64,000 nucleotides of DNA, taken from Planotetraspora kaengkrachanensis. GTDB taxonomy: Bacteria; Actinomycetota; Actinomycetes; Streptosporangiales; Streptosporangiaceae. Below are positions 24,853 through 40,192 of this stretch, one piece after another. The position numbers were made by a program, and so were the translations under genes. The stretch spans positions 1 to 64,000 of the forward strand of contig NZ_BONV01000033.1 in the NCBI RefSeq assembly GCF_016862895.1, read 5' to 3'. The first letter of the stretch is position 1. Each line of letters begins with the position of its first letter. Under the pieces are notes generated by a model. It was not told the origin of the DNA and made no database searches. It saw nothing but the letters and a program-made list of their open reading frames with translations.

Positions 24853-24993
24853 CTGCCTCCCCCTGATGCGACACCATCGCGTGGCCCGTTACGCGAAACA
24901 ATCGGATAGATCACCTTGTGCGCTTCGCCGACCCTACGCCCGAGGAGATCACAGAGGTGTCACGATCACCCGACAGATCGCCATGATCCCCCC

Positions 24994-25031
24994 TTAGCCG
25001 TGACCCACCCCCTCAGCCGTGACCCACCCCC
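24994..25031 (+). repeat. Two 19-bp lead-in repeats before array 1
   Basis: TTAGCCGTGACCCACCCCC at 24994-25012 and TCAGCCGTGACCCACCCCC at 25013-25031 are head-to-tail and run straight into TTAGCCGTGATCATGCAC at 25032, the first 53-bp unit. GTGACCC is a variant of the GTGATCA core. Confidence 0.8.
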
Positions 25032-25037
25032 TTAGCC

Positions 25038-25260
25038 GTGATCATGCACGGATTCGCGGAAGTACCCGCCGACCTGCCCACCCCCGCCGCGTGATCATGC
25101 ACAGATTCGCGTTCATGCCCGCTCACCTGCCGATACTCACCCCGTGATCATGCACGCTTTCGGCCGCGTACGGCCCGACCGGCGGAAACCCTGGCCGTGA
25201 TCATGCACGGATTCGTCGCCGTGCCGTACGACCAGGGCGGACACACCGCGTGATCATGCA
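25038..25260 (+). repeat. Array 1: five forward GTGATCATGCAC units, 53-bp period
   Basis: The 12-mer starts at 25038, 25091, 25144, 25197 and 25250, exactly 53 bp apart every time; the fifth copy ends in CAG instead of CAC. The 8-10 bases after the 12-mer (consensus AGRTTCGC) are partly conserved; the rest of each unit is degenerate, with a recurring ACCTGCC near its centre. It fills the space between the ABC operon and the UbiA gene and ends 45 bp before the UbiA start. Confidence 0.9.
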
Positions 25261-25296
25261 GATCACGCCTGGCCCCATGATGATCCACGCCGGAGT

Positions 25297-25302
25297 TAGG
25301 CT
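25297..25302 (+). promoter_or_regulatory. Probable -10 box of a leaderless UbiA transcript
   Basis: TAGGCT stands three to six bases before the GTG-GTG start codons of the prenyltransferase gene, and no Shine-Dalgarno sequence is present. This is the pattern of leaderless actinobacterial transcripts. Confidence 0.45.
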
Positions 25303-25305
25303 CTG

Positions 25306-26157
25306 GTGGTGACGATGGGGCGCGGCTCCCTGACGGGGGCGCTGAGCGGTCTCGCGAAGTCCTGTCACCCCGGGCCGACCGTGGCCGTCACCGCGCTGGT
25401 CACCGCCCTTGCTGTGGCCGCCGGACATGACACCTCGGGCAGCGTCCTGGTGGCGGCCGCCATTCTCACCGGTCAACTCTCAGTGGGCTGGTGCAACGAC
25501 GCCGTCGACGCGGCCCGTGACACCGCCGCCGCTCGTGCCGAGAAGCCCATCGTCGCCGGACTGGTCGGCGTGAAGACGGTGTACGTGTCCGCGATCTCCG
25601 CGTTCGCCCTCTGCGTGCCGCTCTCGTTCGCCTGCGGCCTGCTCGCCGGTGCCGTCCACCTCGTCGCCGTCGCGGGAGCGTGGGCGTACAACCTCCGGCT
25701 GAAGGCGACCGTGTTGTCCTGGGCGCCGTACGTCGTGGGATTCGGCAGCCTGCCGATCTTCGTGACGACCGGGCTCCCCGGAGGGCCGTGGCCGGCGTGG
25801 TGGGCGGTCGCCGCGGCGGCTGCGCTCGGGCTCGGGGCGCATCTCGCGAACGTCCTGCCCGACATCGCACAGGACGTCGCCGTCGGAGTCCGCGGCTGGC
25901 CGCAACGTCTGGGGCCGTCCCGTGTCCGCACGTTGATCCCGGTTCCCCTGCTCGGGGCGTCGGCACTGCTCGTGTTCGCGCCTGCCGGGCCGCCGGGTTC
26001 TGTCGCGTGGGCCGCGCTGGCCGCGGCCTCCGTGTTCGGCGTCGCGGGTACGGCTCTCGCCGGCCTGTCACCGAGGGTCCCCTTCGCCGCGGCCATCGGG
26101 TGTGCGGCCGTCGATGTCGGCCTCCTCCTCGGGTCCGGAGTCGGTGTGGGCGTCTGA
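25306..26157 (+). CDS. UbiA family prenyltransferase
   Basis: A 283-residue polytopic membrane protein (eight to nine helices). Both Asp-rich motifs of the UbiA family are present: NDAVDAARD at residues 64-72 and DIAQD at 186-190, which bind the Mg-diphosphate of a prenyl donor. Such enzymes attach a prenyl chain to an aromatic ring. The gene is leaderless and is enclosed by repeat array 1 upstream and inverted array 2 downstream. The type III polyketide synthase, methyltransferase and flavoprotein genes that follow suggest a prenylated or quinone-type phenolic product. It could instead serve a general role such as menaquinone synthesis, but the context argues against that. Confidence 0.88.
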   Translation: MVTMGRGSLTGALSGLAKSCHPGPTVAVTALVTALAVAAGHDTSGSVLVAAAILTGQLSVGWCNDAVDAARDTAAARAEKPIVAGLVGVKTVYVSAISAFALCVPLSFACGLLAGAVHLVAVAGAWAYNLRLKATVLSWAPYVVGFGSLPIFVTTGLPGGPWPAWWAVAAAAALGLGAHLANVLPDIAQDVAVGVRGWPQRLGPSRVRTLIPVPLLGASALLVFAPAGPPGSVAWAALAAASVFGVAGTALAGLSPRVPFAAAIGCAAVDVGLLLGSGVGVGV

Positions 26158-26169
26158 CGGGCCGCGTCG

Positions 26170-26393
26170 CTGCATGATCACGAACGGCATATGCGCGGGC
26201 CAGACCGTGCGCGACCGAAAGCGTGCATGATCACGGAGTGAGTATTGGCAGGTGAGCGGGCATGAACGCGAATCCGTGCATGATCACGAGCAGGTGGAGG
26301 GCAGGTCACGGGGGCTCTTGACGAAGATGTGCATGATCACGGCAAGGGAAGGGGCTGGTCAGCGGGCATGGCCGCGAGCCTGTGCATGATCAC
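26170..26393 (-). repeat. Array 2: five inverted GTGATCATGCAC units, 53-bp period
   Basis: Read on the minus strand, GTGATCATGCAC begins at 26393, 26340, 26287 and 26234, and GTGATCATGCAG at 26181, exactly 53 bp apart each time. The array fills the gap between the UbiA stop and the polyketide synthase promoter and has the opposite orientation to array 1. An apparent open frame through it would extend the polyketide synthase upstream, but this is not coding. Confidence 0.9.
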
Positions 26394-26484
26394 CCCACGA
26401 GGGGGCGGGGGTGATCGGCATGGGGACGCTCTTGGCGGGCAAAAGAGATATGCCGAATCTTTCGCTACCCCGGGGGAATTGGAT

Positions 26485-27603
26485 ATGACGCGAATCGCCG
26501 CCGTCCACGGAGTCCTTCCCCCGAACAGGTATCCGCAGGCGGAGATCACCGACGTCTTCGCCAAGGTCTGCCTCCCCGACGGCGCCGACCGCAGACTGCT
26601 CGACCGGCTCCACGGCAGCGCCCGCGTCTCGCATCGCAATCTCGTGCTCCCCCTCGACCAGTACGGCGAGCTCGACGGGTTCGGCATGGCGAACGACCTG
26701 TTCATCGAGGCGGCCGTCGAACTCGGGGCCCAGGCGGTCGCGGGCGCACTCGACGCGGCGGGTCTCACCCCGGACGACGTCGACATGATCATGTGCACGT
26801 CCGTGACCGGCATCGCGGCCCCCTCCATCGACGCGCGGCTCGCGGGCCGCCTCGGCCTGCGCCCGGACGTGAAGCGGATCCCCGTCTTCGGCCTCGGCTG
26901 CGTGGCCGGCGCGGCGGGGATCGCCCGCCTGCACGACTACCTGCGCGGCTGGCCCGGTCATGTGGCCGTCCTGCTCTCGGTGGAACTGTGCTCACTCACG
27001 CTCCAGCGGGAGGACGGCTCGATCGCCAACCTGGTGGCGAGCGCGCTGTTCGGAGACGGCGCCGCGGCGGTCGTCGCCGTCGGCGACGACAGGCCCACCG
27101 CCGAGAGACCAACCGCTCCGAACCCGCAGAGCCCCGCCGCCCCTCACCCGCAGAGCACCACAGCCCAGGGGCCCACGGTCGTGGCCACCCGCAGCCGGCT
27201 CTACCCGTCCTCCCAGCGGGTGATGGGCTGGGACGTCCGCGACTCCGGCTTCAAGGTCGTGCTGGACGCCGGTGTGCCCGACGTCGTGCGGACCTACCTC
27301 GCCGACGACGTGACCGCCTTCCTCGGCGGCCACGGGCTGACCGCACCGGACATGACGGCCTGGGTGTGCCATCCGGGCGGGCCGAAGGTCCTCGAGGCCG
27401 TGGCGGACACGCTCGAACTGCCGACCGGGGCGCTCGACATGACCTGGCGGTCGCTGGACGCGATCGGGAACCTGTCCTCGTCCTCGGTCCTGCACGTGCT
27501 CAGGGACACCCTCGCCCTCCGCCCGCCGCCGCCCGGCACCCCGGGGCTGCTGATCGCCATGGGCCCCGGCTTCTGCTCCGAGCTCGTCCTGCTGCGCTGG
27601 TAG
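26485..27603 (+). CDS. Type III polyketide synthase
   Basis: A 372-residue chalcone-synthase-like enzyme that condenses malonyl-CoA units onto an acyl starter. The catalytic triad is visible: Cys139 in GLGCVAGAAG, His296 in WVCHPGGPK and Asn329 in IGNLSSSSV. Between residues ~205 and 235 there is a Pro/Ala/Thr-rich insert (PTAERPTAPNPQSPAAPH) not usual for the family. GGGGGAATTGG precedes the ATG at 26485; the longer frame from 26329 crosses repeat array 2 and is rejected. The order PKS, isoprenylcysteine-type methyltransferase, FAD oxidoreductase is that of srsABC of Streptomyces griseus, which makes methylated alkylresorcinols and quinones; a similar phenolic lipid is the likely product. 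Confidence 0.93.
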   Translation: MTRIAAVHGVLPPNRYPQAEITDVFAKVCLPDGADRRLLDRLHGSARVSHRNLVLPLDQYGELDGFGMANDLFIEAAVELGAQAVAGALDAAGLTPDDVDMIMCTSVTGIAAPSIDARLAGRLGLRPDVKRIPVFGLGCVAGAAGIARLHDYLRGWPGHVAVLLSVELCSLTLQREDGSIANLVASALFGDGAAAVVAVGDDRPTAERPTAPNPQSPAAPHPQSTTAQGPTVVATRSRLYPSSQRVMGWDVRDSGFKVVLDAGVPDVVRTYLADDVTAFLGGHGLTAPDMTAWVCHPGGPKVLEAVADTLELPTGALDMTWRSLDAIGNLSSSSVLHVLRDTLALRPPPPGTPGLLIAMGPGFCSELVLLRW

Positions 27604-27621
27604 GACAGGGAGGTCCCGCAC

Positions 27622-28185
27622 GTGTCGACCTGGTACGCATTACTCGTCGTCCTCGTCGCGGTGGAACGCCTCGCCGAACTGGTCGTGGCCCGCCGCAACG
27701 CCCGCTGGAGCCTCGCCCGAGGCGGCGTCGTCGCCGGACGCGGCCACTATCCCTGGATGGTCGCCCTCCACACGGGGCTGCTGTTCGGATGCCTGCTGGA
27801 GGTGTGGCTGGCCGACCGGCCGTTCGTTCCCGCGCTCGGCTGGCCCATGCTGGTCCTGGTCCTGGCGGCCCAGGGCCTGCGCTGGTGGTGCATCGCCACT
27901 CTCGGGCGCCAGTGGAACACCGAGGTCATCGTGGTGCCCGGTCTGCCGCTGGTGGCCCGCGGGCCGTACCGGCTGGCGTGGCTGCGCCATCCGAACTACG
28001 TGGCGGTGGCGGTCGAGGGGGCGGCGCTGCCGCTGGTTCACACCGCGTGGCTGACGGCGGCCGTCTTCACCGTGCTGAACGCGGCCCTCATGGTCGTGCG
28101 GATCCGCTGCGAGGAGTCCCTCATGGACCGGCTCTCCGCCGCGGCGGCCTCGGGCTCCCGATCGCAGGAGGGGGCGCCTGGATGA
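27622..28185 (+). CDS. Isoprenylcysteine carboxyl methyltransferase (ICMT) family protein
   Basis: A 187-residue membrane methyltransferase with about four helices and the C-terminal SAM-binding signature GPYRLAWLRHPNYVAVAVEGAA. In SrsB of the S. griseus alkylresorcinol pathway the same family O-methylates a resorcinol, and I infer that role here. GGGAGG precedes the GTG start 18 bp after the polyketide synthase. Its stop overlaps the start of the flavoprotein gene (ATGA). Confidence 0.88.
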   Translation: MSTWYALLVVLVAVERLAELVVARRNARWSLARGGVVAGRGHYPWMVALHTGLLFGCLLEVWLADRPFVPALGWPMLVLVLAAQGLRWWCIATLGRQWNTEVIVVPGLPLVARGPYRLAWLRHPNYVAVAVEGAALPLVHTAWLTAAVFTVLNAALMVVRIRCEESLMDRLSAAAASGSRSQEGAPG

Positions 28186-29207
28186 TCGACGTACTCGTCG
28201 CGGGCGGCGGCCCGGCCGGGCTCGCGACCGCGATCAACGCCGCACTGGCCGGGATGGAGGCGGTCGTGGTGGAACCACGGGCCGGCCCCGTGGACAAGGC
28301 CTGCGGCGAGGGGCTGATGCCGACGGGAGCCGCCGCGCTCCGGTCGATGGGCGTCCTCATGGCGGGCAGGCCGTTCCGCGGGATCCGCTACCTCGACGGC
28401 AGCCACCGCGCCCAGGCGGCCTTCCACGACGGCCTCGGTGTCGGCGTGCGGCGTACGGTCCTGCACGCGGCGCTCGCCGAACGCGCGGAGAGTCTCGGCG
28501 TGCGCGTCGTCCCCGGCCACGTGGACGGCGTCAGCCAGGAGACCGGATCTGTGCTCGCCTCAGTGAGCGACCGTACCGTGAGCGCGCGGTGGCTGGTCGC
28601 CGCCGACGGGCTGCACTCCCCCATCCGGGCGATGCTCGGACTGGATCCGCCCCCTTCCCGCCTCCGGAGGTACGGCCTGCGCCGCCATTACCGGACGGCC
28701 CCGTGGACCGACTTCGTGGAGGTGCACTGGGCCCCCGGAGGCGAGGCGTACGTCACCCCGGTGGGCGACGACCTCGTCGGCGTGGCCGTGCTGAGCTCCC
28801 GGCGCCGGGCCTACGACGAGCACCTGTCGGAGTTCCCCGATCTGCGGGCCCGCCTGGACTGCCCCGCGGCGACCCCGGTGCGCGGTGCGGGGCCCCTGCT
28901 CCAGCGCGTACGGTCCCGGGTGGCCGGGCGGGTGCTGCTGGTCGGGGACGCGGCGGGCTACATGGACGCCCTCACCGGCGAGGGCCTGTCGCTGGCGGTG
29001 TTGTCGTCGCAGGCTCTGGTCCGCTGCCTGCGGGCGGGGCGGCCCGAGGCCTACGAGCAGGCCTGGCGCCGCATATCCCTGCGCCACCGGCTGCTGACCG
29101 CCGCCCTCCTCGCGGCCCGCCGTCACCAGGGGTCCGCGCGTCTCGTCGTCCCTGCGGCGCAGCGGATGCCCGCGCTCTTCGGCGCCGCCGTACGAGCCCT
29201 CGCCTGA
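28182..29207 (+). CDS. FAD-dependent oxidoreductase/monooxygenase
   Basis: A 341-residue flavoprotein of the geranylgeranyl reductase/aromatic hydroxylase superfamily: dinucleotide motif VAGGGPAGLATAINAAL with a downstream acidic end (VVVE), the DG motif in VAADGLHSPIRAMLG and the GD motif LLVGDAAGYMDALTGEG. It corresponds in position to SrsC, a hydroxylase that converts methylated alkylresorcinol to a quinone precursor. Reduction of an isoprenoid chain is the alternative, given the UbiA neighbour. The start overlaps the methyltransferase stop by 4 bases. Confidence 0.87.
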   Translation: MIDVLVAGGGPAGLATAINAALAGMEAVVVEPRAGPVDKACGEGLMPTGAAALRSMGVLMAGRPFRGIRYLDGSHRAQAAFHDGLGVGVRRTVLHAALAERAESLGVRVVPGHVDGVSQETGSVLASVSDRTVSARWLVAADGLHSPIRAMLGLDPPPSRLRRYGLRRHYRTAPWTDFVEVHWAPGGEAYVTPVGDDLVGVAVLSSRRRAYDEHLSEFPDLRARLDCPAATPVRGAGPLLQRVRSRVAGRVLLVGDAAGYMDALTGEGLSLAVLSSQALVRCLRAGRPEAYEQAWRRISLRHRLLTAALLAARRHQGSARLVVPAAQRMPALFGAAVRALA

Positions 29208-29225
29208 GAGTCCCGGTTAACCGCC

Positions 29226-29816
29226 GTGCGGCCGGTCCGCGTCGCGGTGAATGGTGAGGGCGAGATCACCGAGGATCGGGCCGTCGAACTGGTCGAGGCG
29301 CTGCTGTCGCCGATGCGGCAGCGGTCGCCGTGGATGCCTGAACTCGCCGTCCTCCACGTGGAGGAACACGCCCTCGGCTGGCTGGTCTTCTGGCAGTCGG
29401 TGGAGTACGTCCGCGGCCGCGACTTGGAGCACATGCTGGCGGGCCACGGCCCTTACCTGGTGGACCGGCAGGACGGGAGCATCCACCACATCCCCGTCAC
29501 CACGTACGTGAGTGAGGACTGGGAGGCTCTGTACGTTCAGCAGATCAAGGACGTCCGACCGCCTGATCCGCTGGCCACGGCCGTCCGGGAGCTCACGCGC
29601 TCCGAGGGGGCCATGGCCGCGATGCGCCACCTGCGCAAGCATGCCCCGCAGCTGGGACCGCGAGAGGCGAAGGCCTATGTCATGGCCGTGCGGGACGGCG
29701 CGGAGCCGCCGGAGGAACTCGCGAACCTCACCAGGAAACAGGAGGCGATCCCGGCGCTGTCCATCGACACGGTGGCCGGACCGACAGGTGGTCCCATCGA
29801 GAGAGGGGGATCCTGA
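29226..29816 (+). CDS. YrhB/Imm35-like domain protein with L7/L12-like tail
   Basis: A 196-residue protein. Residues ~10-95 resemble the YrhB (Imm35) domain, with WLVFWQSVEYVRGRD and GPYLVDRQDGSIHHIPVTTYV. Residues ~125-160 (AMAAMRHLRKHAPQLGPREAKAYVMAV) resemble the short motif of the ribosomal L7/L12 C-terminal fold seen in related Streptomyces proteins. The family is mostly uncharacterised; some members are toxin immunity proteins or chaperone-like. GTG start, 18 bp after the flavoprotein, so it could be read with the biosynthetic operon. No toxin gene is nearby. Confidence 0.65.
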   Translation: MRPVRVAVNGEGEITEDRAVELVEALLSPMRQRSPWMPELAVLHVEEHALGWLVFWQSVEYVRGRDLEHMLAGHGPYLVDRQDGSIHHIPVTTYVSEDWEALYVQQIKDVRPPDPLATAVRELTRSEGAMAAMRHLRKHAPQLGPREAKAYVMAVRDGAEPPEELANLTRKQEAIPALSIDTVAGPTGGPIERGGS

Positions 29817-30033
29817 GACCCCAGATTCGCCGCCGCAAGCGGGCGGAATTCTCTATCCTCGTCAACCGAATCACGCGCATCGCGACGATTCCGGCATCCA
29901 TCCGGCACGCCGCGAATAGAACGCAATTCGATCCGCATTAAGTCGCCATATTTATCGACTTTCATGCGATGATCTGGCGGTGCATTCGAAAGCGAGGCCG
30001 GTCCTCTGGCGAGGATGACTGGAGGATCTTCAC

Positions 30034-30741
30034 TTGCCCAGCTCCGCCGTGCTCGCCCTCGCCGCCGTGACGATCTGCCTCGTGTGCGCCGCCCTCGCCG
30101 TGCTCGCCTGCCGTTCACGACGGTCCCGCCGTCCGGACGGCGAAGCCCTGCGCAAGGCCGCGGCCGAGGCGCGTGAACAGCTCGGCCGCGACGTGCACGA
30201 CCTGGTCGGCAGCCGCCTCTGGCTGGCCTCCCTCCAGGGCGAGCTCGCCTACCGCCTCGCCGACGAGAACTCCCCCGTGCGGCCGGCCCTGGCCAACGTG
30301 ATCGAGTCCGTCCGCAGGGCGGCGACCGACATCCGCAACGTGACCCGGTCCTACCAGGAGATCTCCCTCTGGTCGGAGATCGCCGACGCCAGGGCCGTCC
30401 TCACCGCGCGCGGCGTCGACTGCACTCTTCAGGTGGCGGACGTCGCGCTCGCCCCCGACGCCGGCGCCTTCTTCGCGGTCACGGTGCGCGAGGCGGTGAC
30501 CAACGTGCTCCGGCACAGCGACGCACGTCGCTGCCTCATCGAGATGCGGCCGACGGGCCGGTCGGTCACCCTCACCGTCGCCAACGACGGCGTGGAGCCC
30601 ATGACCCGCCCGCGGAGCGGCACCGGCATCGACAGCCTGCGCGTCCGCGCGGCCGCCCTCGACGGCACGGTCAGCACGATCCTCGACCTGGACGGCTGGT
30701 TCCGGCTGGTGACGGAGCTCCCCACGCGTTCCTCCCGCTGA
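30034..30741 (+). CDS. Small sensor histidine kinase, HisKA_3/HATPase type
   Basis: A 235-residue protein: one membrane helix at residues 5-25 followed by basic residues, a dimerisation/phosphoacceptor segment with LGRDVHDLVGSRLW (His55), and a HATPase domain (VREAVTNVLRHSDARRCLIEM as N box, GTGIDSLRVRAAAL as G box). There is no extracellular sensor domain. TTG start after GGAGG. No regulator gene is adjacent; the NarL-type regulator at the far end of the lanthipeptide operon is the obvious candidate partner. The upstream 216 bp is AT-richer than the surroundings and has no gene. Confidence 0.82.
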   Translation: MPSSAVLALAAVTICLVCAALAVLACRSRRSRRPDGEALRKAAAEAREQLGRDVHDLVGSRLWLASLQGELAYRLADENSPVRPALANVIESVRRAATDIRNVTRSYQEISLWSEIADARAVLTARGVDCTLQVADVALAPDAGAFFAVTVREAVTNVLRHSDARRCLIEMRPTGRSVTLTVANDGVEPMTRPRSGTGIDSLRVRAAALDGTVSTILDLDGWFRLVTELPTRSSR

Positions 30742-30908
30742 CCTGCCCGGACCGGTCCCGCCACTCTCCGGAAGCCAGGCCGCCTCGGCCCGTCACCTGT
30801 GAGTTCGGCCGATTCCACACGCATGCGTCCGGCCCGTCCATGGGTTCGTCATGCGATGTCCCATGACCAGAATCACGGGTGGCCGCATGACGGACACCTA
30901 TGCAGGTG

Positions 30909-30949
30909 TTGACTCACGTAACTTGGCCCAACCCCTTAATTCCGGAATT
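30909..30949 (+). promoter_or_regulatory. Candidate promoter and 12-bp palindrome before the lanthipeptide operon
   Basis: TTGACT at 30909-30914 and CTTAAT at 30935-30940 form a promoter-like pair with a wide 20-bp spacer, which would suit activator control. AATTCCGGAATT at 30938-30949 is a perfect 12-bp palindrome overlapping the -10 region, a possible operator. It lies 32 bp before the start of the LanKC gene. Confidence 0.45.
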
Positions 30950-30980
30950 CTTTGAAGCGATCGGCCTAAGGGGAAATCTT

Positions 30981-33578: not shown

Positions 33579-33718
33579 TGGCACTTCTCGACCTTCAGAC
33601 GCTCGAGACCCCCGGTGGTCACGGCGGCGGTCACGGTGGAGGCGGCGGCAGCAACCTGAGCCTGCTGGCCTGCACCCCGCACGAGAACAGCAGCCTCAGC
33701 CTGCTCTGCGGGCGGTGA
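33578..33718 (+). CDS. Class III lanthipeptide precursor, AmfS/SapB type
   Basis: A 46-residue peptide. The leader MALLDLQTLETPGG has the LxLQ motif recognised by LanKC enzymes and begins like AmfS. A Gly/His linker (residues 13-24) follows: two GGH groups and runs of Gly. The core, from Ser25, has two cyclisation motifs: SNLSLLAC (S-X2-S-X3-C, Cys32) and SSLSLLC (S-X2-S-X2-C, Cys44), joined by TPHEN and ending in GR. Both fit the labionin/lanthionine pattern S-X2-S-X2-5-C. The start overlaps the LanKC stop (TAATG) and GGAAGGAGGTG is a near-perfect ribosome-binding site, suited to high output. By relation to SapB and AmfS, a surfactant-like morphogenetic peptide is likely. Confidence 0.95.
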   Translation: MALLDLQTLETPGGHGGGHGGGGGSNLSLLACTPHENSSLSLLCGR

Positions 33719-33736
33719 CGATTTAGCACGACAGGT

Positions 33737-33761
33737 CTGGGCGGCCCTCGCGGCCGCCCAG
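33737..33761 (+). terminator. Hairpin between precursor and exporter genes
   Basis: CTGGGCGGCC, loop CTCGC, GGCCGCCCAG: a perfect 10-bp GC stem. It lies 18 bp after the precursor stop and 76 bp before the exporter start. Partial termination or 3'-end protection here would give more precursor mRNA than exporter mRNA. Confidence 0.6.
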
Positions 33762-33837
33762 GCTCTCGTTTCTCCGGGACCCTCCGAGCCGAGGCCTCAT
33801 GCCGGTTCGGGGAGGTCCAAGGTCCAGGGAGGGGCCG

Positions 33838-35529
33838 ATGTCCTCACGAGCGGCGGACGCGCTGATCAGCACGGCCGCCAGGCACAGCGGCCGGTGGCTG
33901 TGGCTCCTCACCGCCACCGCGCTGGCCGGCTCCGTCGCGGAGCTGTTCCTCCCGATGGCGCTCGGCCGCACGCTCGACACCCTGACGGGGGCCACGCCGG
34001 ACGGCCACGGGTGGCTGCCCGCGACCGTGCTCCTCGTGGTCTTCCTCGTTGCCTGTGACGCGCTCGGCGTCCTGTCGTCCGGCGCGAGCGGGGCGCACGC
34101 GGCGCTGTGGCTGCGCCGCCGCGTCGTCGGCCACATCCTCGCCGTCGGGGCGGCCATGACCAGGCGTTTCACGACCGGGGACCTGGTGACCCGCGCGGGG
34201 GTGAACGTGGAGGAGGCCGCACGCGCGCCCGAGTCCGTCGTCACGGCCGCGTCGCTGGTCATCCCCTCCGCCGGGAGCGTGGTCGCCCTCGCCCTCATCG
34301 ATCCGTGGCTGGCGGTGACGCTCGTCGCGGGTCTGCTCGCCATCGTCGGCGTCGTCCGGGCGTTCATGCGCAAGACGACGGCGGCCGCGGGCGGCTACCA
34401 GCAGGCTCAGGGCGAAATCGCGGCCCGGCTCGTCGGCGCCCTCGCGGGTGCGAGCACGATCACGGCGGCGGGCACCCAGGAGCAGGAGGTGCGCCGCGTC
34501 CTCCTGCCGCTCCCCCGGCTCCGCTCACACGGGCTGGCGCTGTGGCGGCTCCACGCGCGTGCGGGTGTGCAGGCGGCCGTGGTGATCCCGCTGCTGGAGA
34601 CGGCGGTGCTCGCCGTCGGCGGGCTCAGGCTCGCGAGCGGCGCCCTCACCGTCGGCGAACTGCTCGCCGGAGCCCGCTACGCCGTGCTCGGCGCGGGCCT
34701 CGGCTCGGCGATCGGCTACGCGGGCCGGCTCGCCCGCGCCCGGTCGGCCGCCCACCGCCTCGAACGTCTGCTGGCGGAGCGGCCCCTTTCGTACGGCTCC
34801 CGCCCGCCGGCCGGAGGGCGCGGGCGGCTGGAGTTCCGCAGGGTCACCGTCCGGGCGAACGGCACGCCTCTGCTGAGCGACATCGATCTGGTGGTCCCCG
34901 GCGGGTGCTGCGTGGCGGTCGTCGGCCGGTCGGGCTCGGGCAAGTCGTCGCTCGCGGCGGTGGCGGGCAGACTGGTCGACCCGGACTGGGGGTCGGTGCT
35001 GCTCGACGGTGTTCCACTGCCGGAGATCGGGCGTGATCAGCTGCGCCGCGCGGTCGGGTACGCGTTCGAGCGTCCGGTCCTGCTCGGCGCGACCGTCGGT
35101 GACGCCGTCGCCTTCGGGCAGCGGTGGCCGGACGCCGCCCGGGTCCAGGAGGCGGCGCAGGACGCGTGCGCCGACGTGTTCATCCGCCGCCTGCCCCGGG
35201 GATACGCCACGCCGACGGCGGCGGCGCCGATGTCGGGCGGCCAGGCCCAGCGCGTCGGCCTCGCCCGGGCGTTCGCCCAGGCCGAGCGCCTCCTCATCCT
35301 CGACGACGCCATGTCGAGCCTCGACACCCTCACCGAGCGCCAGGTCAGCCGCGCGCTCACCGGCAGGCTCGCGGACCGGACCCGCCTGGTCGTCGCCCAC
35401 CGGGTCGCCACCGCGGCCCGGGCCGACCAGGTCGTCTGGCTGGAGAACGGGCGTGTGCGCGCACACGGCACGCATGAGTCGCTGTGGGCCGACCCGGACT
35501 ACCGGGCGGTCTTCCAGGGGGCCACATGA
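33838..35529 (+). CDS. ABC transporter, fused membrane and ATPase (lanthipeptide exporter half 1)
   Basis: A 563-residue half-transporter: six helices (residues ~20-310), then an ATPase with Walker A GRSGSGKSS, signature MSGGQAQRVGLARAF, Walker B LLILDDAMSSLD (Asp in place of the usual Glu after the Walker B Asp) and VVAHRVATA. That substitution suggests a weak site and a heterodimer with the next gene. AGGGAGGGG precedes the ATG at 33838; an ATG at 33799 is less likely. Corresponds to AmfA/AmfB or RamA/RamB and should export the modified peptide. No peptidase domain, so leader removal needs another protease. Confidence 0.92.
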   Translation: MSSRAADALISTAARHSGRWLWLLTATALAGSVAELFLPMALGRTLDTLTGATPDGHGWLPATVLLVVFLVACDALGVLSSGASGAHAALWLRRRVVGHILAVGAAMTRRFTTGDLVTRAGVNVEEAARAPESVVTAASLVIPSAGSVVALALIDPWLAVTLVAGLLAIVGVVRAFMRKTTAAAGGYQQAQGEIAARLVGALAGASTITAAGTQEQEVRRVLLPLPRLRSHGLALWRLHARAGVQAAVVIPLLETAVLAVGGLRLASGALTVGELLAGARYAVLGAGLGSAIGYAGRLARARSAAHRLERLLAERPLSYGSRPPAGGRGRLEFRRVTVRANGTPLLSDIDLVVPGGCCVAVVGRSGSGKSSLAAVAGRLVDPDWGSVLLDGVPLPEIGRDQLRRAVGYAFERPVLLGATVGDAVAFGQRWPDAARVQEAAQDACADVFIRRLPRGYATPTAAAPMSGGQAQRVGLARAFAQAERLLILDDAMSSLDTLTERQVSRALTGRLADRTRLVVAHRVATAARADQVVWLENGRVRAHGTHESLWADPDYRAVFQGAT

Positions 35530-37241
35530 GTGGCGGGCTCGTGTGGATCTTCCTTCGCCGGTCGTTGTCGCGGGAGCCGTACCGGATCGTCCGGCTGAGC
35601 GCCTGGTCACTGGCCGAGGTGGTGCCCGCGTTCGCGGGAGGTCACGCGGTGGCGAGGGCCGTGGACGACGGGTTCGCGGCGGGGCGTCCCGGGACGGGAC
35701 TCGCCTGGCTCGCCCTGCTGGCCGCCGCCTGGCTGCTGGCCGCCGTCGCGGCCCGCCAGATCCTGTTGAACATCGCGGCGGTGGTCGAGCCCTTCCGCGA
35801 CGACCTGCTGACCCGCGTGGTCTCCGGCGCGTTGCGCGCGGGGCGTGACGGCGACGCCGCGGCGGTGGCCAGGATGAACCATCAGGTCGAGCTCGCGAGG
35901 GACGCGCTCGGGGCGATCATCACCGTGGTCAGGTCGTTCGTGTTCACCCTGGTCAGCGTCGCGATCGGCATGATGACGCTCGCCCCGGAGGTGGTGCCGC
36001 TCGTGTTGCCCCCCGTGCTGCTCGGCCTGGGCCTGTTCCTCGCGTCCCTGCCCGCGCTGGCCCGGCGGCAGCGGGACTTCATCGTGGCCGACGAGCGGAC
36101 CGCCTCGGCGGTTGCCGTCATGGCGGGCGGACTGCGCGACGTCTCGGCCTGCGGGGCGGAGGTCCGCGTCGCCGCCACCGTGGGCCGCCAGATCGGCGAC
36201 CAGGCCCGGGCCGCCAGATCGCTGGCCAGGGTCACGGCCACCCGGACGTTGTCGCTCGCCGTGGGCGGCTGGCTGCCGATCCTCCTGCTGCTCGCGGGGA
36301 CACCGTGGCTGCTCGGCCGGGGTCTGACGGCGGGAGTGGTGCTCGGGGCCCTCACGTACGTCATGCAGTCGCTCACTCCCGCGCTGTCCGGGCTCGTCCA
36401 GGGGCTCGGCGTCAGCGGGGTACGGCTGGCCGTCACTCTGGAGCGGATCCTCGGCGACCAGGGCCCGCCGGAGTCGGGCGGGCCGCGGCGGCGTCCCGAG
36501 GGCACGCGACTGGAGCTGACGGGGGTCGCCTTCGCGTACGGGCCCAAAGCGGAGCCGGTGATCGACGGTCTGGATCTCGTCGTGCCGGAAGGCGACCACC
36601 TCGCGGTCGTGGGGCCGAGCGGGATCGGCAAGTCCACCCTCGCCGGGCTCGTCGCCGGGGTGCTGCGCCCCACGGAGGGCTCGGTGCTGGTCGGCGGCGT
36701 CCCCGCGAACGAGACGCACGAGGCGGTACGCGCGCTGATCCCGCAGGAGGCCTACGTCTTCCACGGAAGCCTCGCGGAGAACCTCACCTACCTCACCCCC
36801 GAGGCGCCGGCCGAGGCCGTCGACGAGGCTGTCGCGGCCTTCGGGCTGGCCGGCCTGGCCCAGCGGTTCGACGGCTACGACACCGAGATCGATCCGGCCG
36901 AGCTGTCCGCCGGAGAGCGGCAGCTGATCGCGCTGGCCAGGACCTATCTGTCCCCCGCGCGGCTGGTCGTGCTCGACGAGGCGACCTGCCATCTCGACGC
37001 CGCCGCCGAGGCCAGAGCCGAGGCCGCGTTCGCCGCGAGGGGCGGGACGCTGATCGTCGTCGCCCACCGGATCTCGTCCGCGCTGCGTGCCCGCCGCGTC
37101 CTGGTCATGGACGGCACCCGCGTGCTGGTCGGAACGCACGAGGACCTGGTCGGCGCCTCGCCGCTCTACGCCGACCTCGTCGGCCTATGGGTGGATCACC
37201 GCCTGCCCCAAGGGATCCCCACCCCCTCCCCCCGCCCATGA
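35526..37241 (+). CDS. ABC transporter, fused membrane and ATPase (lanthipeptide exporter half 2)
   Basis: A 571-residue half-transporter with six helices and an ATPase: Walker A GPSGIGKST, signature LSAGERQLIALARTY, Walker B LVVLDEATCHLD with the catalytic Glu intact, and VVAHRIS. Its start overlaps the partner's stop by 4 bases (ATGA). Together with the preceding protein it probably forms a heterodimeric exporter in which this half has the main ATPase site. Last gene of the lanthipeptide operon; a repeat array follows at once. Confidence 0.92.
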   Translation: MSGGLVWIFLRRSLSREPYRIVRLSAWSLAEVVPAFAGGHAVARAVDDGFAAGRPGTGLAWLALLAAAWLLAAVAARQILLNIAAVVEPFRDDLLTRVVSGALRAGRDGDAAAVARMNHQVELARDALGAIITVVRSFVFTLVSVAIGMMTLAPEVVPLVLPPVLLGLGLFLASLPALARRQRDFIVADERTASAVAVMAGGLRDVSACGAEVRVAATVGRQIGDQARAARSLARVTATRTLSLAVGGWLPILLLLAGTPWLLGRGLTAGVVLGALTYVMQSLTPALSGLVQGLGVSGVRLAVTLERILGDQGPPESGGPRRRPEGTRLELTGVAFAYGPKAEPVIDGLDLVVPEGDHLAVVGPSGIGKSTLAGLVAGVLRPTEGSVLVGGVPANETHEAVRALIPQEAYVFHGSLAENLTYLTPEAPAEAVDEAVAAFGLAGLAQRFDGYDTEIDPAELSAGERQLIALARTYLSPARLVVLDEATCHLDAAAEARAEAAFAARGGTLIVVAHRISSALRARRVLVMDGTRVLVGTHEDLVGASPLYADLVGLWVDHRLPQGIPTPSPRP

Positions 37242-37294
37242 CCACGCCCCCCTGGCCGTGACCACGCACCCCTTGCCGTGACCACGCCCCCCTG
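37235..37294 (+). repeat. Three 20-bp lead-in repeats before array 3
   Basis: GCCGTGACCACGCACCCCTT-like units occupy 37235-37254, 37255-37274 and 37275-37294 (the first has CCATG for CCGTG and overlaps the last codons of the exporter gene). They run directly into GCCGTGATCATGCAC at 37295. This repeats the layout in front of array 1, where the units are 19 bp. Confidence 0.8.
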
Positions 37295-37297
37295 GCC

Positions 37298-37415
37298 GTG
37301 ATCATGCACAGGTTCGTGATCACGCCCTCCCACCTGCCCGTTCCCTTGGCGTGATCATGCACAGACTCGCGATCAACACGCGTGACCAGGGAGAACGCCA
37401 ATCGTGATCATGCGC
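37298..37415 (+). repeat. Array 3: three forward GTGATCATGCAC units, 53-bp period
   Basis: GTGATCATGCAC starts at 37298 and 37351, and GTGATCATGCGC at 37404, again exactly 53 bp apart. The array fills the space between the converging exporter gene and response-regulator gene. No promoter for a gene start is expected here, so these copies lie at two 3' ends. Confidence 0.9.
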
Positions 37416-37479
37416 GGTTCGTCGCGTGGGCCGATATCCACGGCTTCTTTCGGTTCGACGGGCACTCCGCCCCACCGGG

Positions 37480-38151
37480 TCAGCGCCTGGGGCGCTGGCG
37501 GAGGATGCCGATCTCACGCCCGTTCGCCGGCCACAACCAGCCCGATTCCGAGGCGATCTGAATCGCCTCCACGCGTGATCGGGCGCCGAGCTTGGCGAGA
37601 ATGCGCGACAGGTAGTTCCGGACCGTTCCATGGGAAAGCGAAAGCCGCTCGGCTATCTCGCCGACCGTGGCTCCTGCTGCGGCGATCTCCAGGATGTCCA
37701 GCTCGCGAGCCGTCAGCGGGTTGCCGTCCGTGTCGAGCGCGGCCGCCGCGAGCTCGGGGTCGACCACACGCTCGCCGGCGTACACGCGGCGGATGCAGTC
37801 GACAACGTGCCCGGGTTCGGCGTCCTTGACGATAAAGCCCCGTACGTTGGCGTCCAGCGACCGGCGCAGGGCGAGCGGGGTGCCGAGCCCGGTGAGGATC
37901 ACCGTCTTGCAGGTGGGTAATCGCCGGTGCAGTTCCGAGGCCGCGGTCAGTCCGTCGACCCCGGGCATCCCGATGTCGAGCAGGGCGACGTCCGGCCGGC
38001 GCAGACAGGCGAGCCTGACGATCTCCTCGCCTCTCGCGGTCTCGGCGACCACCTCGAGGTCGTCCTCACAGGAGAGCAGCGCGATCAGAGCCTTCCGGAT
38101 CAGATGCATGTCCTCGGCGAGCAGCAGACGAATCACCAGCGGTTCACTCAC
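37480..38151 (-). CDS. NarL/FixJ-type response regulator (RamR/AmfR-like)
   Basis: A 223-residue regulator: receiver domain with acidic pair Glu13-Asp14, phosphoacceptor Asp59 (VALLDIGMPG) and the Lys of GFIVKDAE, then a LuxR-type HTH (LTARELDILEIAAAGATVGEIAERLSLSHGTVRNYLSRI, shown in part). The GTG at 38151 follows AAGGAAG; an earlier start at 38196 is possible. In Streptomyces, RamR and AmfR activate the homologous lanthipeptide operon, so it probably activates the LanKC operon. It converges on that operon instead of following it on the same strand. Confidence 0.9.
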   Translation of the reverse strand: MSEPLVIRLLLAEDMHLIRKALIALLSCEDDLEVVAETARGEEIVRLACLRRPDVALLDIGMPGVDGLTAASELHRRLPTCKTVILTGLGTPLALRRSLDANVRGFIVKDAEPGHVVDCIRRVYAGERVVDPELAAAALDTDGNPLTARELDILEIAAAGATVGEIAERLSLSHGTVRNYLSRILAKLGARSRVEAIQIASESGWLWPANGREIGILRQRPRR

Positions 38152-38314
38152 GCTTCCTTGTCCCCGACGCCCGGGACCGTGACGGCCCGAGCTCACTCAA
38201 TATGGACGCCGGACATCGTTTTCGGTTGCCCTCTCCACTCCATCTATTACCTTTAATCGCCAGTCTTATCGGCGAAAGCCGTACAGGTCTGGAAATTGTG
38301 CGACCAACGGAAAA

Positions 38315-38342
38315 TGCCCGGCTCCGTGGTAGGAGCCGGGCA
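38315..38342 (-). terminator. Rho-independent terminator of the Pro/Ala-rich protein gene
   Basis: TGCCCGGCTCC and GGAGCCGGGCA form a perfect 11-bp stem with a 6-base loop. On the minus strand it is followed by TTTT, as expected for a terminator of the gene ending at 38410. The remaining 160 bp up to the response regulator is AT-richer and should hold that gene's promoter. Confidence 0.75.
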
Positions 38343-38409
38343 CGAATCCGCTGCTAGAACAAGTCCACCCGATAAGTACTATCCAGGATGAACGACGCTT
38401 TGTCGCGAT

Positions 38410-39684
38410 TTATGGATGCTTATCCAGACTGATGTCACCTGCGTAGTGACCGGTACCCGCATATTCCGCGCGCCAGACGCCGTCGCCCATTCCGCGAAGC
38501 CGGCTGCTGAACCAGCCGTTCTTGTCGGTCACGGCCGTACCCATCGTGCGCCACACCCCCGAACCGGCGGGCCGGAAGGCCAGTGACACCGACTGCCCCG
38601 CGAACGGCCGGTAGTCCACCCGGCCGAGCGGGTCGACGCGCAGCAGGGTCCCGGTGATGCGGACCTGGTTGTTGACGCTGCGGAGGACGTTCACCCCTTC
38701 GAGCGTGGTCTGCCGCTTCAGAAAGAAGATCGTCCGGTAATTGACGACGTTCCCCTGTGCGTTCCGGGCCGTGGCCGTGACCGTCCACTGACCGCTGGGG
38801 TACCACCTGGACAGCGGCTTCTCCGGCAGGAAGAGCCAGGTCTCCCATTCGGACCGGTCGTTGCCTGCGCCGGGGACCGACGCGGACATCGCACGCATGG
38901 GTCCATGCGGGATGGTGTGGGCGTTCGCGGCGGCCGGAGCACCCGCCGCCGGCGCTGCCGCCGGGGCGCCCAAAGCCTGCGTGGGCGCAGGGACCTTGGC
39001 CGTCGGAGCCTGAGTCGGCATAGGAGCCTTCACCTGGGCAGGGACGTGGCCGGACGTCTGAGCGGGCAACGGCGCGGGGATCTTGGCAGGAGCCTGAGCC
39101 GGCACGGGCGCGGGCACTTTCGCCGGAACCTGAGCGGCAACAGGTGCCTTCACCTGCCCAGGAACCTGAGACGGGACCTGCGCCTGAACCTGCGGCTGAG
39201 CAGGAACGGGCGCCTTCACCTGCGCGGGAACCTGCGAGGAGGCCTGCGCGGGCGCGGGGGCCTGCGCCGGGAACTGGGCCGGAGGTTGCGCGGGAGCTTG
39301 TGCCGCAGGTTGCGCTGGGGCCTGCGCCGGAGCCTGAGCCGGGAACTGGCCATGGGCGGGAGGCTGGGCGGGGACTCCCGGCACGACGTTGCCCGGGGTA
39401 CCGGGATTGGCGGGCGGCTGCACTCCTGGTGACGGTGGAGTTCTGGGACCGCTCGGGGTCACCGGTCCGGTACGGCCGGGCTCGAGGAGAACGGAGACGG
39501 CCGTCGCCCCCCGCGCCATCACCTCGATCACCACCTTGACCGCACCCGTCGGCCCCACGACGGGGGTTCCCGGCTTGACCGTGATGGACCTGATGGCCAG
39601 TTCGTCGGCGGCCGCGGGGGCCGAACCGGCCGCCAACGTAACCGCCATTCCGAGGATAGGCGTCGCAATCAAACGTCTCATCAT
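38410..39684 (-). CDS. Secreted protein with long Pro/Ala/Gln repeat region
   Basis: A 424-residue protein not matched to a known family. Signal peptide MMRRLIATPILGMAVTLAAG with a cut near ADE; a small beta domain to about residue 75; a low-complexity region (~85-290) of PAQ-, PAQVK-, PAQAP- and PAPVPAQ-type repeats; and a C-terminal domain (~305-424) with EWETWLFLPEKPLSRWYPSG and GNVVNYRTIFFLKRQTTLEG, probably beta-sandwich. There is no clear ribosome-binding site; TACGGT lies 8-10 bases before the ATG, so a leaderless start is possible. The layout resembles a cell-wall spanning linker between two folded domains. Its place beside the morphogen-type lanthipeptide suggests, but does not show, a surface role. 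Confidence 0.8.
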   Translation of the reverse strand: MMRRLIATPILGMAVTLAAGSAPAAADELAIRSITVKPGTPVVGPTGAVKVVIEVMARGATAVSVLLEPGRTGPVTPSGPRTPPSPGVQPPANPGTPGNVVPGVPAQPPAHGQFPAQAPAQAPAQPAAQAPAQPPAQFPAQAPAPAQASSQVPAQVKAPVPAQPQVQAQVPSQVPGQVKAPVAAQVPAKVPAPVPAQAPAKIPAPLPAQTSGHVPAQVKAPMPTQAPTAKVPAPTQALGAPAAAPAAGAPAAANAHTIPHGPMRAMSASVPGAGNDRSEWETWLFLPEKPLSRWYPSGQWTVTATARNAQGNVVNYRTIFFLKRQTTLEGVNVLRSVNNQVRITGTLLRVDPLGRVDYRPFAGQSVSLAFRPAGSGVWRTMGTAVTDKNGWFSSRLRGMGDGVWRAEYAGTGHYAGDISLDKHP

Positions 39685-39777
39685 GGCCAGTGACCGTACG
39701 CAGCCGGAGGTAATCCCCCCGCCCCTGACACACACCCCAACGAGCAAAACCCGCCCGTACGCCCCAACCCCCCGGCC

Positions 39778-39948
39778 GTGATCATGCACACATTCGGGAT
39801 CATGGTCGTCAAGCGGCCCAAACTCCATGCGTGATCATGCGCAGGTTCGGCGAGACCAGCGACTGCCTGCGCCTTGGCCTTCCGTGATCATGCACGACTT
39901 CGCGCATCCGGCCACCGGCTGCCCCGACCACGTGGCGTAATCAGATAC
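39778..39948 (+). repeat. Array 4, forward part: three clear units and one degenerate
   Basis: GTGATCATGCAC at 39778, GTGATCATGCGC at 39831, GTGATCATGCAC at 39884 and the decayed GTAATCAGATAC at 39937, all 53 bp apart. The decayed copy in register shows that the spacing is a property of the repeat and not chance. It lies upstream of the secreted-protein gene, which points away. Confidence 0.88.
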
Positions 39949-40034
39949 GCCTCAATCGCTCGGGCCGTACGTCCTTGAAGACGAATGACACCTCCGCGAC
40001 ACGACAAGCCACCGCCTCGGCCCACACCACTCCA

Positions 40035-40192
40035 TTGCATGATCACAAGCGCCATAACCACAGGCCAGGGCTTACTTCTCCGAACCTGTGCATGATCACA
40101 ACAAGGAGAGGCGCCGGTCAGAGCCCGATCTGCGAATCTGTGCATGATCACCACTGATCACCTGGCGACCACCCGGCGATCACCAACGTGTC
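40035..40192 (-). repeat. Array 4, inverted part, with short-period lead-in
   Basis: On the minus strand GTGATCATGCAC begins at 40151 and 40099 and GTGATCATGCAA at 40046; spacings are 52 and 53 bp. Outside it (40152-40192, read on the minus strand) come GGTGATC, GGTGGTC and GGTGATC groups about 11 bp apart, running into the first full unit. Forward and inverted halves of array 4 face each other with no gene between them. Confidence 0.85.

What the first reader, a model, noticed from the sequence alone, without database searches (positions are those of the whole stretch)
24994..40192. A family of 53-bp periodic arrays of GTGATCATGCAC confined to one 15-kb biosynthetic segment
Nineteen clear copies plus one decayed copy of GTGATCATGCAC occur in four intergenic regions. 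Starts are 25038, 25091, 25144, 25197, 25250; 26393, 26340, 26287, 26234, 26181 (minus); 37298, 37351, 37404; 39778, 39831, 39884, 39937; 40151, 40099, 40046 (minus). Fifteen of the sixteen intervals inside runs are exactly 53 bp; one is 52. The 12-mer is nearly invariant while most of each unit has drifted, so the 12-mer and the spacing look selected. 53 bp is close to five helical turns, which puts all sites of a run on one face of the DNA. This suggests cooperative loading of a DNA-binding protein along a polymer, for silencing, insulation or topological isolation of the lanthipeptide and polyketide genes. No known actinobacterial site that I can name (parS, DnaA box, CRP, AdpA) matches.
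Basis: partly seen in the sequence, partly recalled or inferred. Interest (0 to 1): 0.88.

Follow-up and report, generated by a model that had tools for sequence, protein, structure and literature searches.

The report
Genome-wide periodic sites at gene ends

Summary
The window (Planotetraspora, Streptosporangiaceae) holds 19 copies of GTGATCATGCAC with at most one mismatch; its genome holds 652 exact copies, the reversed word none. Copies form 53-bp head-to-tail runs, often as facing pairs of runs, mostly between genes. In three contiguous stretches that carry them they occupy 19 of 72 convergent gaps, 17 of 241 tandem and 1 of 120 divergent (a fourth stretch, in G432, had none). Units at different loci share little beyond the motif, and orthologous elements persist across species: 12-mers change at 0.04-0.09 per base, spacers at 0.18-0.37. 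So sites and spacing look selected. The core GTGATCATGCA recurs, patchily, in three other actinomycete families, with other or no periods and its own 3' extension in each genome. That fits a trans-acting DNA-binding factor whose specificity drifts; it was not found. REP/RAYT, CRISPR, uptake sequence, RNA structure and active transposition are disfavoured by tests. Best guess: a protein-bound, two-sided gene-end boundary (roadblock or termination aid). Silencing of the biosynthetic cluster is not supported.

The parts
25038..25261 (+). Run of five sites, 53 bp apart (last one GTGATCATGCAG), between an ABC-transporter ATPase gene (-) and a UbiA-family gene (+)
26170..26393 (-). Run of five sites on the minus strand, 53 bp apart, starting 12 bp after the stop codon of the UbiA-family gene; some of its units resemble units of the first run, inverted
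37298..37415 (+). Run of three sites, 53 bp apart, between the convergent ABC-transporter (+, ends 37241) and LuxR-type response regulator (-, ends 37480) genes
39778..39948 (+). Run of three sites plus one decayed site (39937), 53 bp apart
40035..40151 (-). Run of three sites on the minus strand (53, then 52 bp), partner of 39778-39948
24989..25041 (+). Leader of 19-bp degenerate repeats (CCCCCTTAGCCGTGACCCA) on the outer side of the first run
37228..37301 (+). Leader of 20-bp degenerate repeats (CCCCCTGGCCGTGACCACGC) at the end of the ABC-transporter gene, outer side of the third run
25306..26157 (+). UbiA-family gene enclosed by the first two runs; the arrangement is kept in P. silvatica (L066, G004) and P. 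mira (G003)

Best explanation
The arrays are binding sites of an unidentified sequence-specific DNA-binding protein that marks gene ends. SHOWN: a 19-bp box (GTGATCATGCACnnnTTCG in Planotetraspora) and a second, weaker box after 13 more bases, repeated every 53 bp; facing pairs of runs; placement near stop codons and away from divergent gaps; a C-rich leader where the nearest site faces in the gene's own direction; conservation of boxes and spacing while the rest drifts; persistence at fixed loci; a uniform shift of the box in one species. INFERRED: one protein (or complex) per 53-bp unit, bound side by side along the run; two runs facing each other form a non-polar barrier that stops or slows RNA polymerase arriving from either side, helping Rho (which favours C-rich RNA) to release it, and so insulates neighbouring genes. 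The boundary step is the most likely of several functions and has not been tested.
For: Gap preference pooled over 820 kb of three genomes (G000, G004, G093): convergent 19 of 72, tandem 17 of 241, divergent 1 of 120; convergent vs divergent p = 2e-8 (a fourth stretch, 200 kb of G432 with no occupied gap in 85, is not in the pool). Sites in called genes there: 0 of 45, 1 of 61, 1 of 37. Median stop-to-site distance 22, 18 and 49 nt against 56, 69 and 73 for random placement. C/G of the leader 1.95-3.44 in five lineage groups (95, 10, 10, 5 and 7 leaders) against 0.98-1.28 after other stop codons. Selection: 107 of 107 units chosen by phase have the 12-mer with at most 1 mismatch (mean column conservation 0.985 vs 0.61 in the spacer); 387 distinct units with little coupling between columns; orthologue rates. 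Factor: G001 reads mostly CAGAAGTTCG (CAG in 23 of 34 sites) where G000, G003 and G004 read mostly CACAGGTTCG, at orthologous elements. Patchy within genera: G053/G113 149/107 vs G114 2; G116 38 vs G051 1; G432 206 vs G388 0.
Against: No protein was identified and no transcript data were available. In tandem gaps single runs lie sense and antisense about equally in Planotetraspora (fetched loci 12 vs 8 and 5 vs 6; pooled stretches, G093 included, 8 vs 7), so a polar terminator is not supported there; in the few fetched loci of G432, G491/G579 and G093/G091 it was 8 vs 1. The C-rich leader goes with sense-facing sites only (94 leaders C 0.48, G 0.23; 21 antisense C 0.35, G 0.34). Stop-to-site medians vary: 14-24 nt in G116, Planotetraspora, G432 and G491/G579, but 29.5 in G137, 51 in G054, 57 in G093/G091 and 85.5 in G053/G113, where 5 of 43 sites also fall in called genes. 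Only a minority of gene ends carry an element. Two of the window's own four places lie between divergent genes, the exception elsewhere. Large stretches are empty (G432:C1:400-600 kb: 1 site, inside a gene; G000:C2: 3 exact copies in 395 kb), which a housekeeping terminator would not predict. Placement at 3' ends is also what tolerated but useless repeats would show.
Confidence: 0.42

Rival explanations
1. Chromosome-organising sites: a dedicated protein polymerises on the arrays to fold, load or silence the chromosome, and gene ends are merely where such sites are tolerated.
For: Regular 53-bp runs and facing pairs; uneven distribution along contigs; no polarity relative to transcription in Planotetraspora.
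Against: Fetched loci of G432, G491, G579, G113 and G116 show mostly single sites or inverted pairs instead of runs; closeness to stop codons and C-rich leaders are not needed for it; in the complete G093 chromosome the 87 TTCGTGATCATGCA sites lie from 68 kb to 3.08 Mb with no ori or ter pattern evident by eye (dnaA-like gene at the contig start, by eye).
Confidence: 0.2
2. A REP/BIME- or MITE-like repeat family, spread by a lost or unrecognised transposase and now domesticated or inert.
For: Inverted pairs look like terminal repeats; hundreds of copies; 3'-end and convergent-gap preference as described for REPs (recalled); a lineage-specific extension shared by most copies in a genome; in G002 and G001 sites are missing at 3 of 13 and 3 of 9 of the tested places.
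Against: RAYT-type transposase (PF01797) is absent from G000 and from 12 of the 14 genomes searched that have 18 or more copies (present in G001 and G116). No recent copies: variable spacer columns at other loci of the same species agree at 0.401, between species at 0.393. 13 of 13 tested elements of G000 have sites at the same place in P. mira and P. silvatica. Inert copies would not keep 12-mers while spacers change 3.6-6.8 times faster. Other transposase families were not searched.
Confidence: 0.22
3. RNA-level element: the inverted pairs fold as hairpin terminators or 3' stabilisers of mRNA.
For: Pairs with 2-48 nt loops in G054, G053, G432, G491, G116 and others can fold; position after the stop codon.
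Against: 45 of 87 occupied gaps in the named Planotetraspora loci hold runs of one orientation only, counting exact 11-mers; no covariation in 387 units; 12 of 31 close pairs mismatch at position 12; the run at 37280-37470 folds no better than shuffles (z 0.36), the run at 25030-25270 somewhat better (z -2.24); no Rfam match at the gathering score on the elements of five sources. Hairpins need complementarity, not one word in four families.
Confidence: 0.12
4. Uptake or recognition word used for DNA exchange or self-recognition (like the DUS of Neisseria).
For: A 12-mer in inverted pairs at gene ends, hundreds of copies.
Against: Practically none in coding DNA, whereas uptake sequences are frequent in genes (recalled); it explains neither the 53-bp phasing nor the second box.
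Confidence: 0.04

Closest known systems
REP/BIME/REPIN elements with RAYT transposases (features recalled)
   Same: hundreds of extragenic copies, inverted pairs, gene 3' ends and convergent gaps
   Different: no RAYT found in the window's genome; unit not palindromic; direct runs with fixed period; no recent copies; core shared across families
Dispersed chromosomal sites of dedicated proteins (parS/ParB, matS/MatP, Noc and SlmA sites; recalled)
   Same: many short conserved sites for what is probably one protein; uneven along the chromosome
   Different: phased runs, facing pairs, near stop codons; factor unknown; lineage-specific 3' extension
Protein-roadblock terminators (TTF-I/Sal box, Reb1; LacI roadblocks in E. 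coli; recalled, LacI also in the listing)
   Same: repeated sites just after genes; a bound protein would halt polymerase
   Different: genome-wide in a bacterium, and no polarity in Planotetraspora; termination not shown
DNA uptake sequences (recalled)
   Same: 12-mer, inverted pairs, gene ends
   Different: almost absent from coding DNA
CRISPR arrays (recalled)
   Same: conserved word at a fixed period
   Different: the spacer carries a conserved box and consensus, 2-6 units a run, facing pairs, many loci

Membership tests
REP/BIME/REPIN with RAYT | RAYT (Y1_Tnp, PF01797) encoded in the genome | tested here: not met
   absent in G000 and in 12 of the 14 genomes searched with 18 or more copies; present in G001 and G116
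REP/BIME/REPIN with RAYT | extragenic, many copies, inverted pairs | tested here: met
REP/BIME/REPIN with RAYT | copies alike because of recent spread | tested here: not met
   spacers at background likeness between loci; little coupling between columns
CRISPR | spacers unrelated to one another | tested here: not met
   spacer columns 33-40 conserved
DNA uptake sequence | frequent inside genes | tested here: not met
   0 of 45, 1 of 61, 1 of 37 sites in genes
DNA uptake sequence | preferential uptake of marked DNA | not testable with these tools
   needs an experiment
Structured RNA / hairpin terminator | base-pair covariation | tested here: not met
   highest MI among the column pairs listed 0.086 bits in 387 units, pairs at least 3 columns apart; position 12 unpaired in 12 of 31 pairs
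Dispersed sites of a chromosome-organising protein | a known cognate protein | not tested
   factor not identified
Roadblock terminator | sites just downstream of genes | tested here: met
   with the exceptions told in the Against line
Roadblock terminator | transcripts end at the site | not testable with these tools
   no RNA data at hand

The most novel reading that the evidence does not exclude
A previously undescribed, patchily inherited gene-boundary system of Actinomycetes: a dedicated DNA-binding factor recognises an 11-bp core conserved across families plus an extension that drifts from species to species in step at many fixed loci, and in Planotetraspora it assembles on 53-bp phased, facing arrays at gene ends as a two-sided transcription barrier.
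Probability: 0.35. Interest if true: 0.9.

Novelty: new variant of a known kind. Interest (0 to 1): 0.72.

Why it matters
If true, some bacteria delimit a share of their genes with protein-bound boundary arrays, a mode of genome partitioning known mainly from eukaryotes (recalled). Because the box has shifted at orthologous elements between close species, and because there are pairs of same-genus genomes with and without the system, the factor should be findable by comparing gene content, and its effect on termination or folding becomes directly testable. It also warns that such arrays can be taken for features of one biosynthetic cluster, and perhaps for CRISPRs.

Tried and rejected
Rejected: confinement to the biosynthetic segment. 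RAYT/REPIN. Viral carriage: inverted-pair pattern, 0 matches in viral contigs (one pattern only). Plasmid carriage: one 301-base query, 6 chance-level matches, best E 0.9. Known RNA families: window, L160, L166, L125, L174 at the gathering score, 2 matches, neither on an element. A recurrent neighbouring gene: of 1504 called genes 327 lie near sites; the widest cross-lineage cluster spans three groups (four response-regulator-like proteins), so no cargo or factor gene stands out; genes flanking arrays in divergent gaps show no common regulator by eye. Empty-site test in G388: the listed matches are 66-82% identical, too far, not pursued. Printed record: search listings only, some capped (20 of 23, 10 of 10, 15 of 31, 12 of 12, 12 of 51, none found). 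Papers holding the 12-mer or its 11-mer forms: 23, of which the 20 listed do not appear to be about a repeat, judged by title. PMC11431748 was seen only as passages found.

Weak points: gene calls are my own simple codon-bias caller, not a standard annotation. The 220-kb G000 stretch was chosen because it was known to hold arrays; the G004 and G093 stretches also contain places known to hold sites; the G432 stretch was chosen blind and held none in gaps. The orthologue panel was ascertained from G000; one of 14 elements had no usable flank matches and was dropped, and in G001 only 9 of 13 were fetched. In one search elements longer than 900 bp and sites with alignment gaps (6-17 per comparison) were left out, and flanks are mostly coding.
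Full report
WHAT IS THERE. The window holds 19 copies of GTGATCATGCAC with at most one mismatch in five runs (TRF lists 53-bp tandem repeats in three rows). The window's genome has 652 exact copies (320/332 by strand; control 0). The four other genomes of the genus have 165, 231, 623 and 698.

ANATOMY. In 80 named Planotetraspora loci, 174 of 213 same-orientation intervals are 53 bp, then 106, 52, 105, 54; neighbours of opposite orientation are + then - 49 times and - then + 3 times, all three more than 2 kb apart (these loci were fetched by spacing, so see the contiguous stretches: 27 of 32 and 33 of 41). 55 compact facing elements were listed: 2-6 units, a centre of 0-156 bp, most often 11, then 2-6 inverted units. 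Unit consensus from 387 distinct units: GTGATCATGCACAGGTTCG, 13 weakly conserved bases, YGACCTGC, 12 weakly conserved bases, C. On the outer side there may be 19-21 bp degenerate repeats that resemble the core.

SELECTION, NOT RECENT DUPLICATION. Choosing units by phase alone (exact sites 53 bp before and after), 88 of 107 have the exact 12-mer and 19 one mismatch; mean column conservation is 0.985 in the 12-mer and 0.61 in the spacer that follows. Among the column pairs listed the highest mutual information is 0.086 bits, so I see neither RNA covariation nor a clear trace of shared recent ancestry. Variable spacer columns agree at 0.40 between loci of a species, 0.39 between species, 0.47 between adjacent units. 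Of 14 elements of G000, 13 gave usable flanks; P. silvatica and P. mira have sites at all 13, G002 at 10 of 13, G001 at 6 of the 9 regions fetched. At one locus the run is inverted in P. silvatica. Substitutions per base: 12-mer 0.042-0.085; spacer 0.180-0.185 between P. mira and P. silvatica and 0.345-0.368 to G000; flanks 0.055-0.057 and 0.116-0.133. Only 39-50 of 67-78 aligned 12-mers are identical, so single changes are tolerated, and 6-17 sites per comparison fell on gaps.

PLACE. In contiguous stretches of G000 (220 kb), G004 (400 kb) and G093 (200 kb) together, elements occupy 19 of 72 convergent, 17 of 241 tandem and 1 of 120 divergent gaps. A fourth stretch, G432:C1:400-600 kb, has one site, inside a called gene, and no occupied gap in 7 convergent, 55 tandem and 23 divergent ones; it is left out of the pool. 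Nearest site to a stop codon: median 22, 18 and 49 nt. In 29 of 522 sense sites the TGA inside the core is the stop codon of the called gene. In the fetched loci the medians run from 14 nt (G116) and 20-24 (Planotetraspora, G432, G491/G579) to 29.5 (G137), 51 (G054), 57 (G093/G091) and 85.5 (G053/G113). The window itself is atypical: two of its four places lie in gaps between divergent genes.

RELATIVES. Streptosporangiaceae, 341 genomes, pattern TGATCATGCANNNNTTC: 163-728 in G000-G004 and G137, 149 in G053, 107 in G113, 38 in G116, 18 in G054, 10 in G149, and 0-4 in the rest. Many of the remaining genomes carry one TGATCATGCAGGACTTC, by its letters probably coding (inference). Class, 394 genomes: 12-mer 206 in G432, 104 in G579, 87 in G491, at most 7 elsewhere outside the window's genome. 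Phylum, 396 genomes: CGTGATCATGCA 288 in G093, at most 6 elsewhere outside G000. These lie in families f1, f30, f32 and f42; G091 (f30) has only short runs, 22 bp apart. Architecture differs: runs of 53 bp in Planotetraspora and G137, 41 in G054, 37 or 38 in G093, inverted pairs 27-38 bp apart in G432, G116, G113 and G579 (most pairs). After the core each genome mostly has its own extension: CAGG then TTCG in Planotetraspora, GAAG then TTCG in G001, RTCCCGCCACCC in G093, RTCYTGGG after one base in G432, GTTCGCCCC after one base in G491.

MECHANISM. A word kept in DNA in both orientations (antisense runs in tandem gaps: 13 of 19 exact and 6 with one mismatch; sense: 11 and 3 of 14), with an extension that is uniform in a genome but differs between sister species at orthologous loci, is best explained by a trans-acting DNA-binding protein. 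Its position near stop codons, the avoidance of promoter gaps, the facing pairs and the C-rich leaders suggest a two-sided boundary to transcription. The leader is C-rich only where the nearest site faces the gene's own direction, as Rho loading on nascent RNA would want, but single runs in tandem gaps show no preferred direction in Planotetraspora, so the barrier itself would be non-polar there. This step is inference; architecture and domesticated-repeat readings remain open.

NOVELTY. None of the titles and abstract openings listed by my searches describes the repeat. It fails defining tests of REPIN/RAYT, CRISPR, uptake sequences and structured RNA. Broadly it belongs with dispersed chromosomal sites of dedicated proteins, of which it would be a new variant; the more novel reading is given as the novel case.

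Noticed in passing
Planotetraspora genomes as described in PMC11431748 (table passage): DFAST CRISPR counts read 4, 15, 3, 18, 64; with the column order of the legend these are P. kaengkrachanensis, mira, phitsanulokensis, silvatica, thailandica. Some may be these arrays miscalled as CRISPR (inference, not tested).
   Followed up: no
L078:2760-2940 vs L150:4010-4200; element 12: Run orientation is inverted at an orthologous place in P. silvatica, as if arrays can flip in place.
   Followed up: partly
G432:C1:400001-600000; G000:C2: Large chromosomal stretches almost free of sites, while other stretches of the same contig or genome are dense.
   Followed up: partly
G093:C1:2123065-2495159: No TTCGTGATCATGCA site in 372 kb of a complete 3.1-Mb chromosome that has 87.
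   Followed up: partly
L137:5968-6015: An inverted pair of the 12-mer between two genes whose proteins share a near-identical HTH-like N-terminus by eye, in a genome (G028) with only 6 exact copies.
   Followed up: no
window 38410-39684 (-): Predicted protein with long proline/alanine-rich stretches coded by 12-36 bp repeats and no Pfam match, beside the fourth array.
   Followed up: no
window 56257-56642: 39/120-bp tandem repeats.
   Followed up: no
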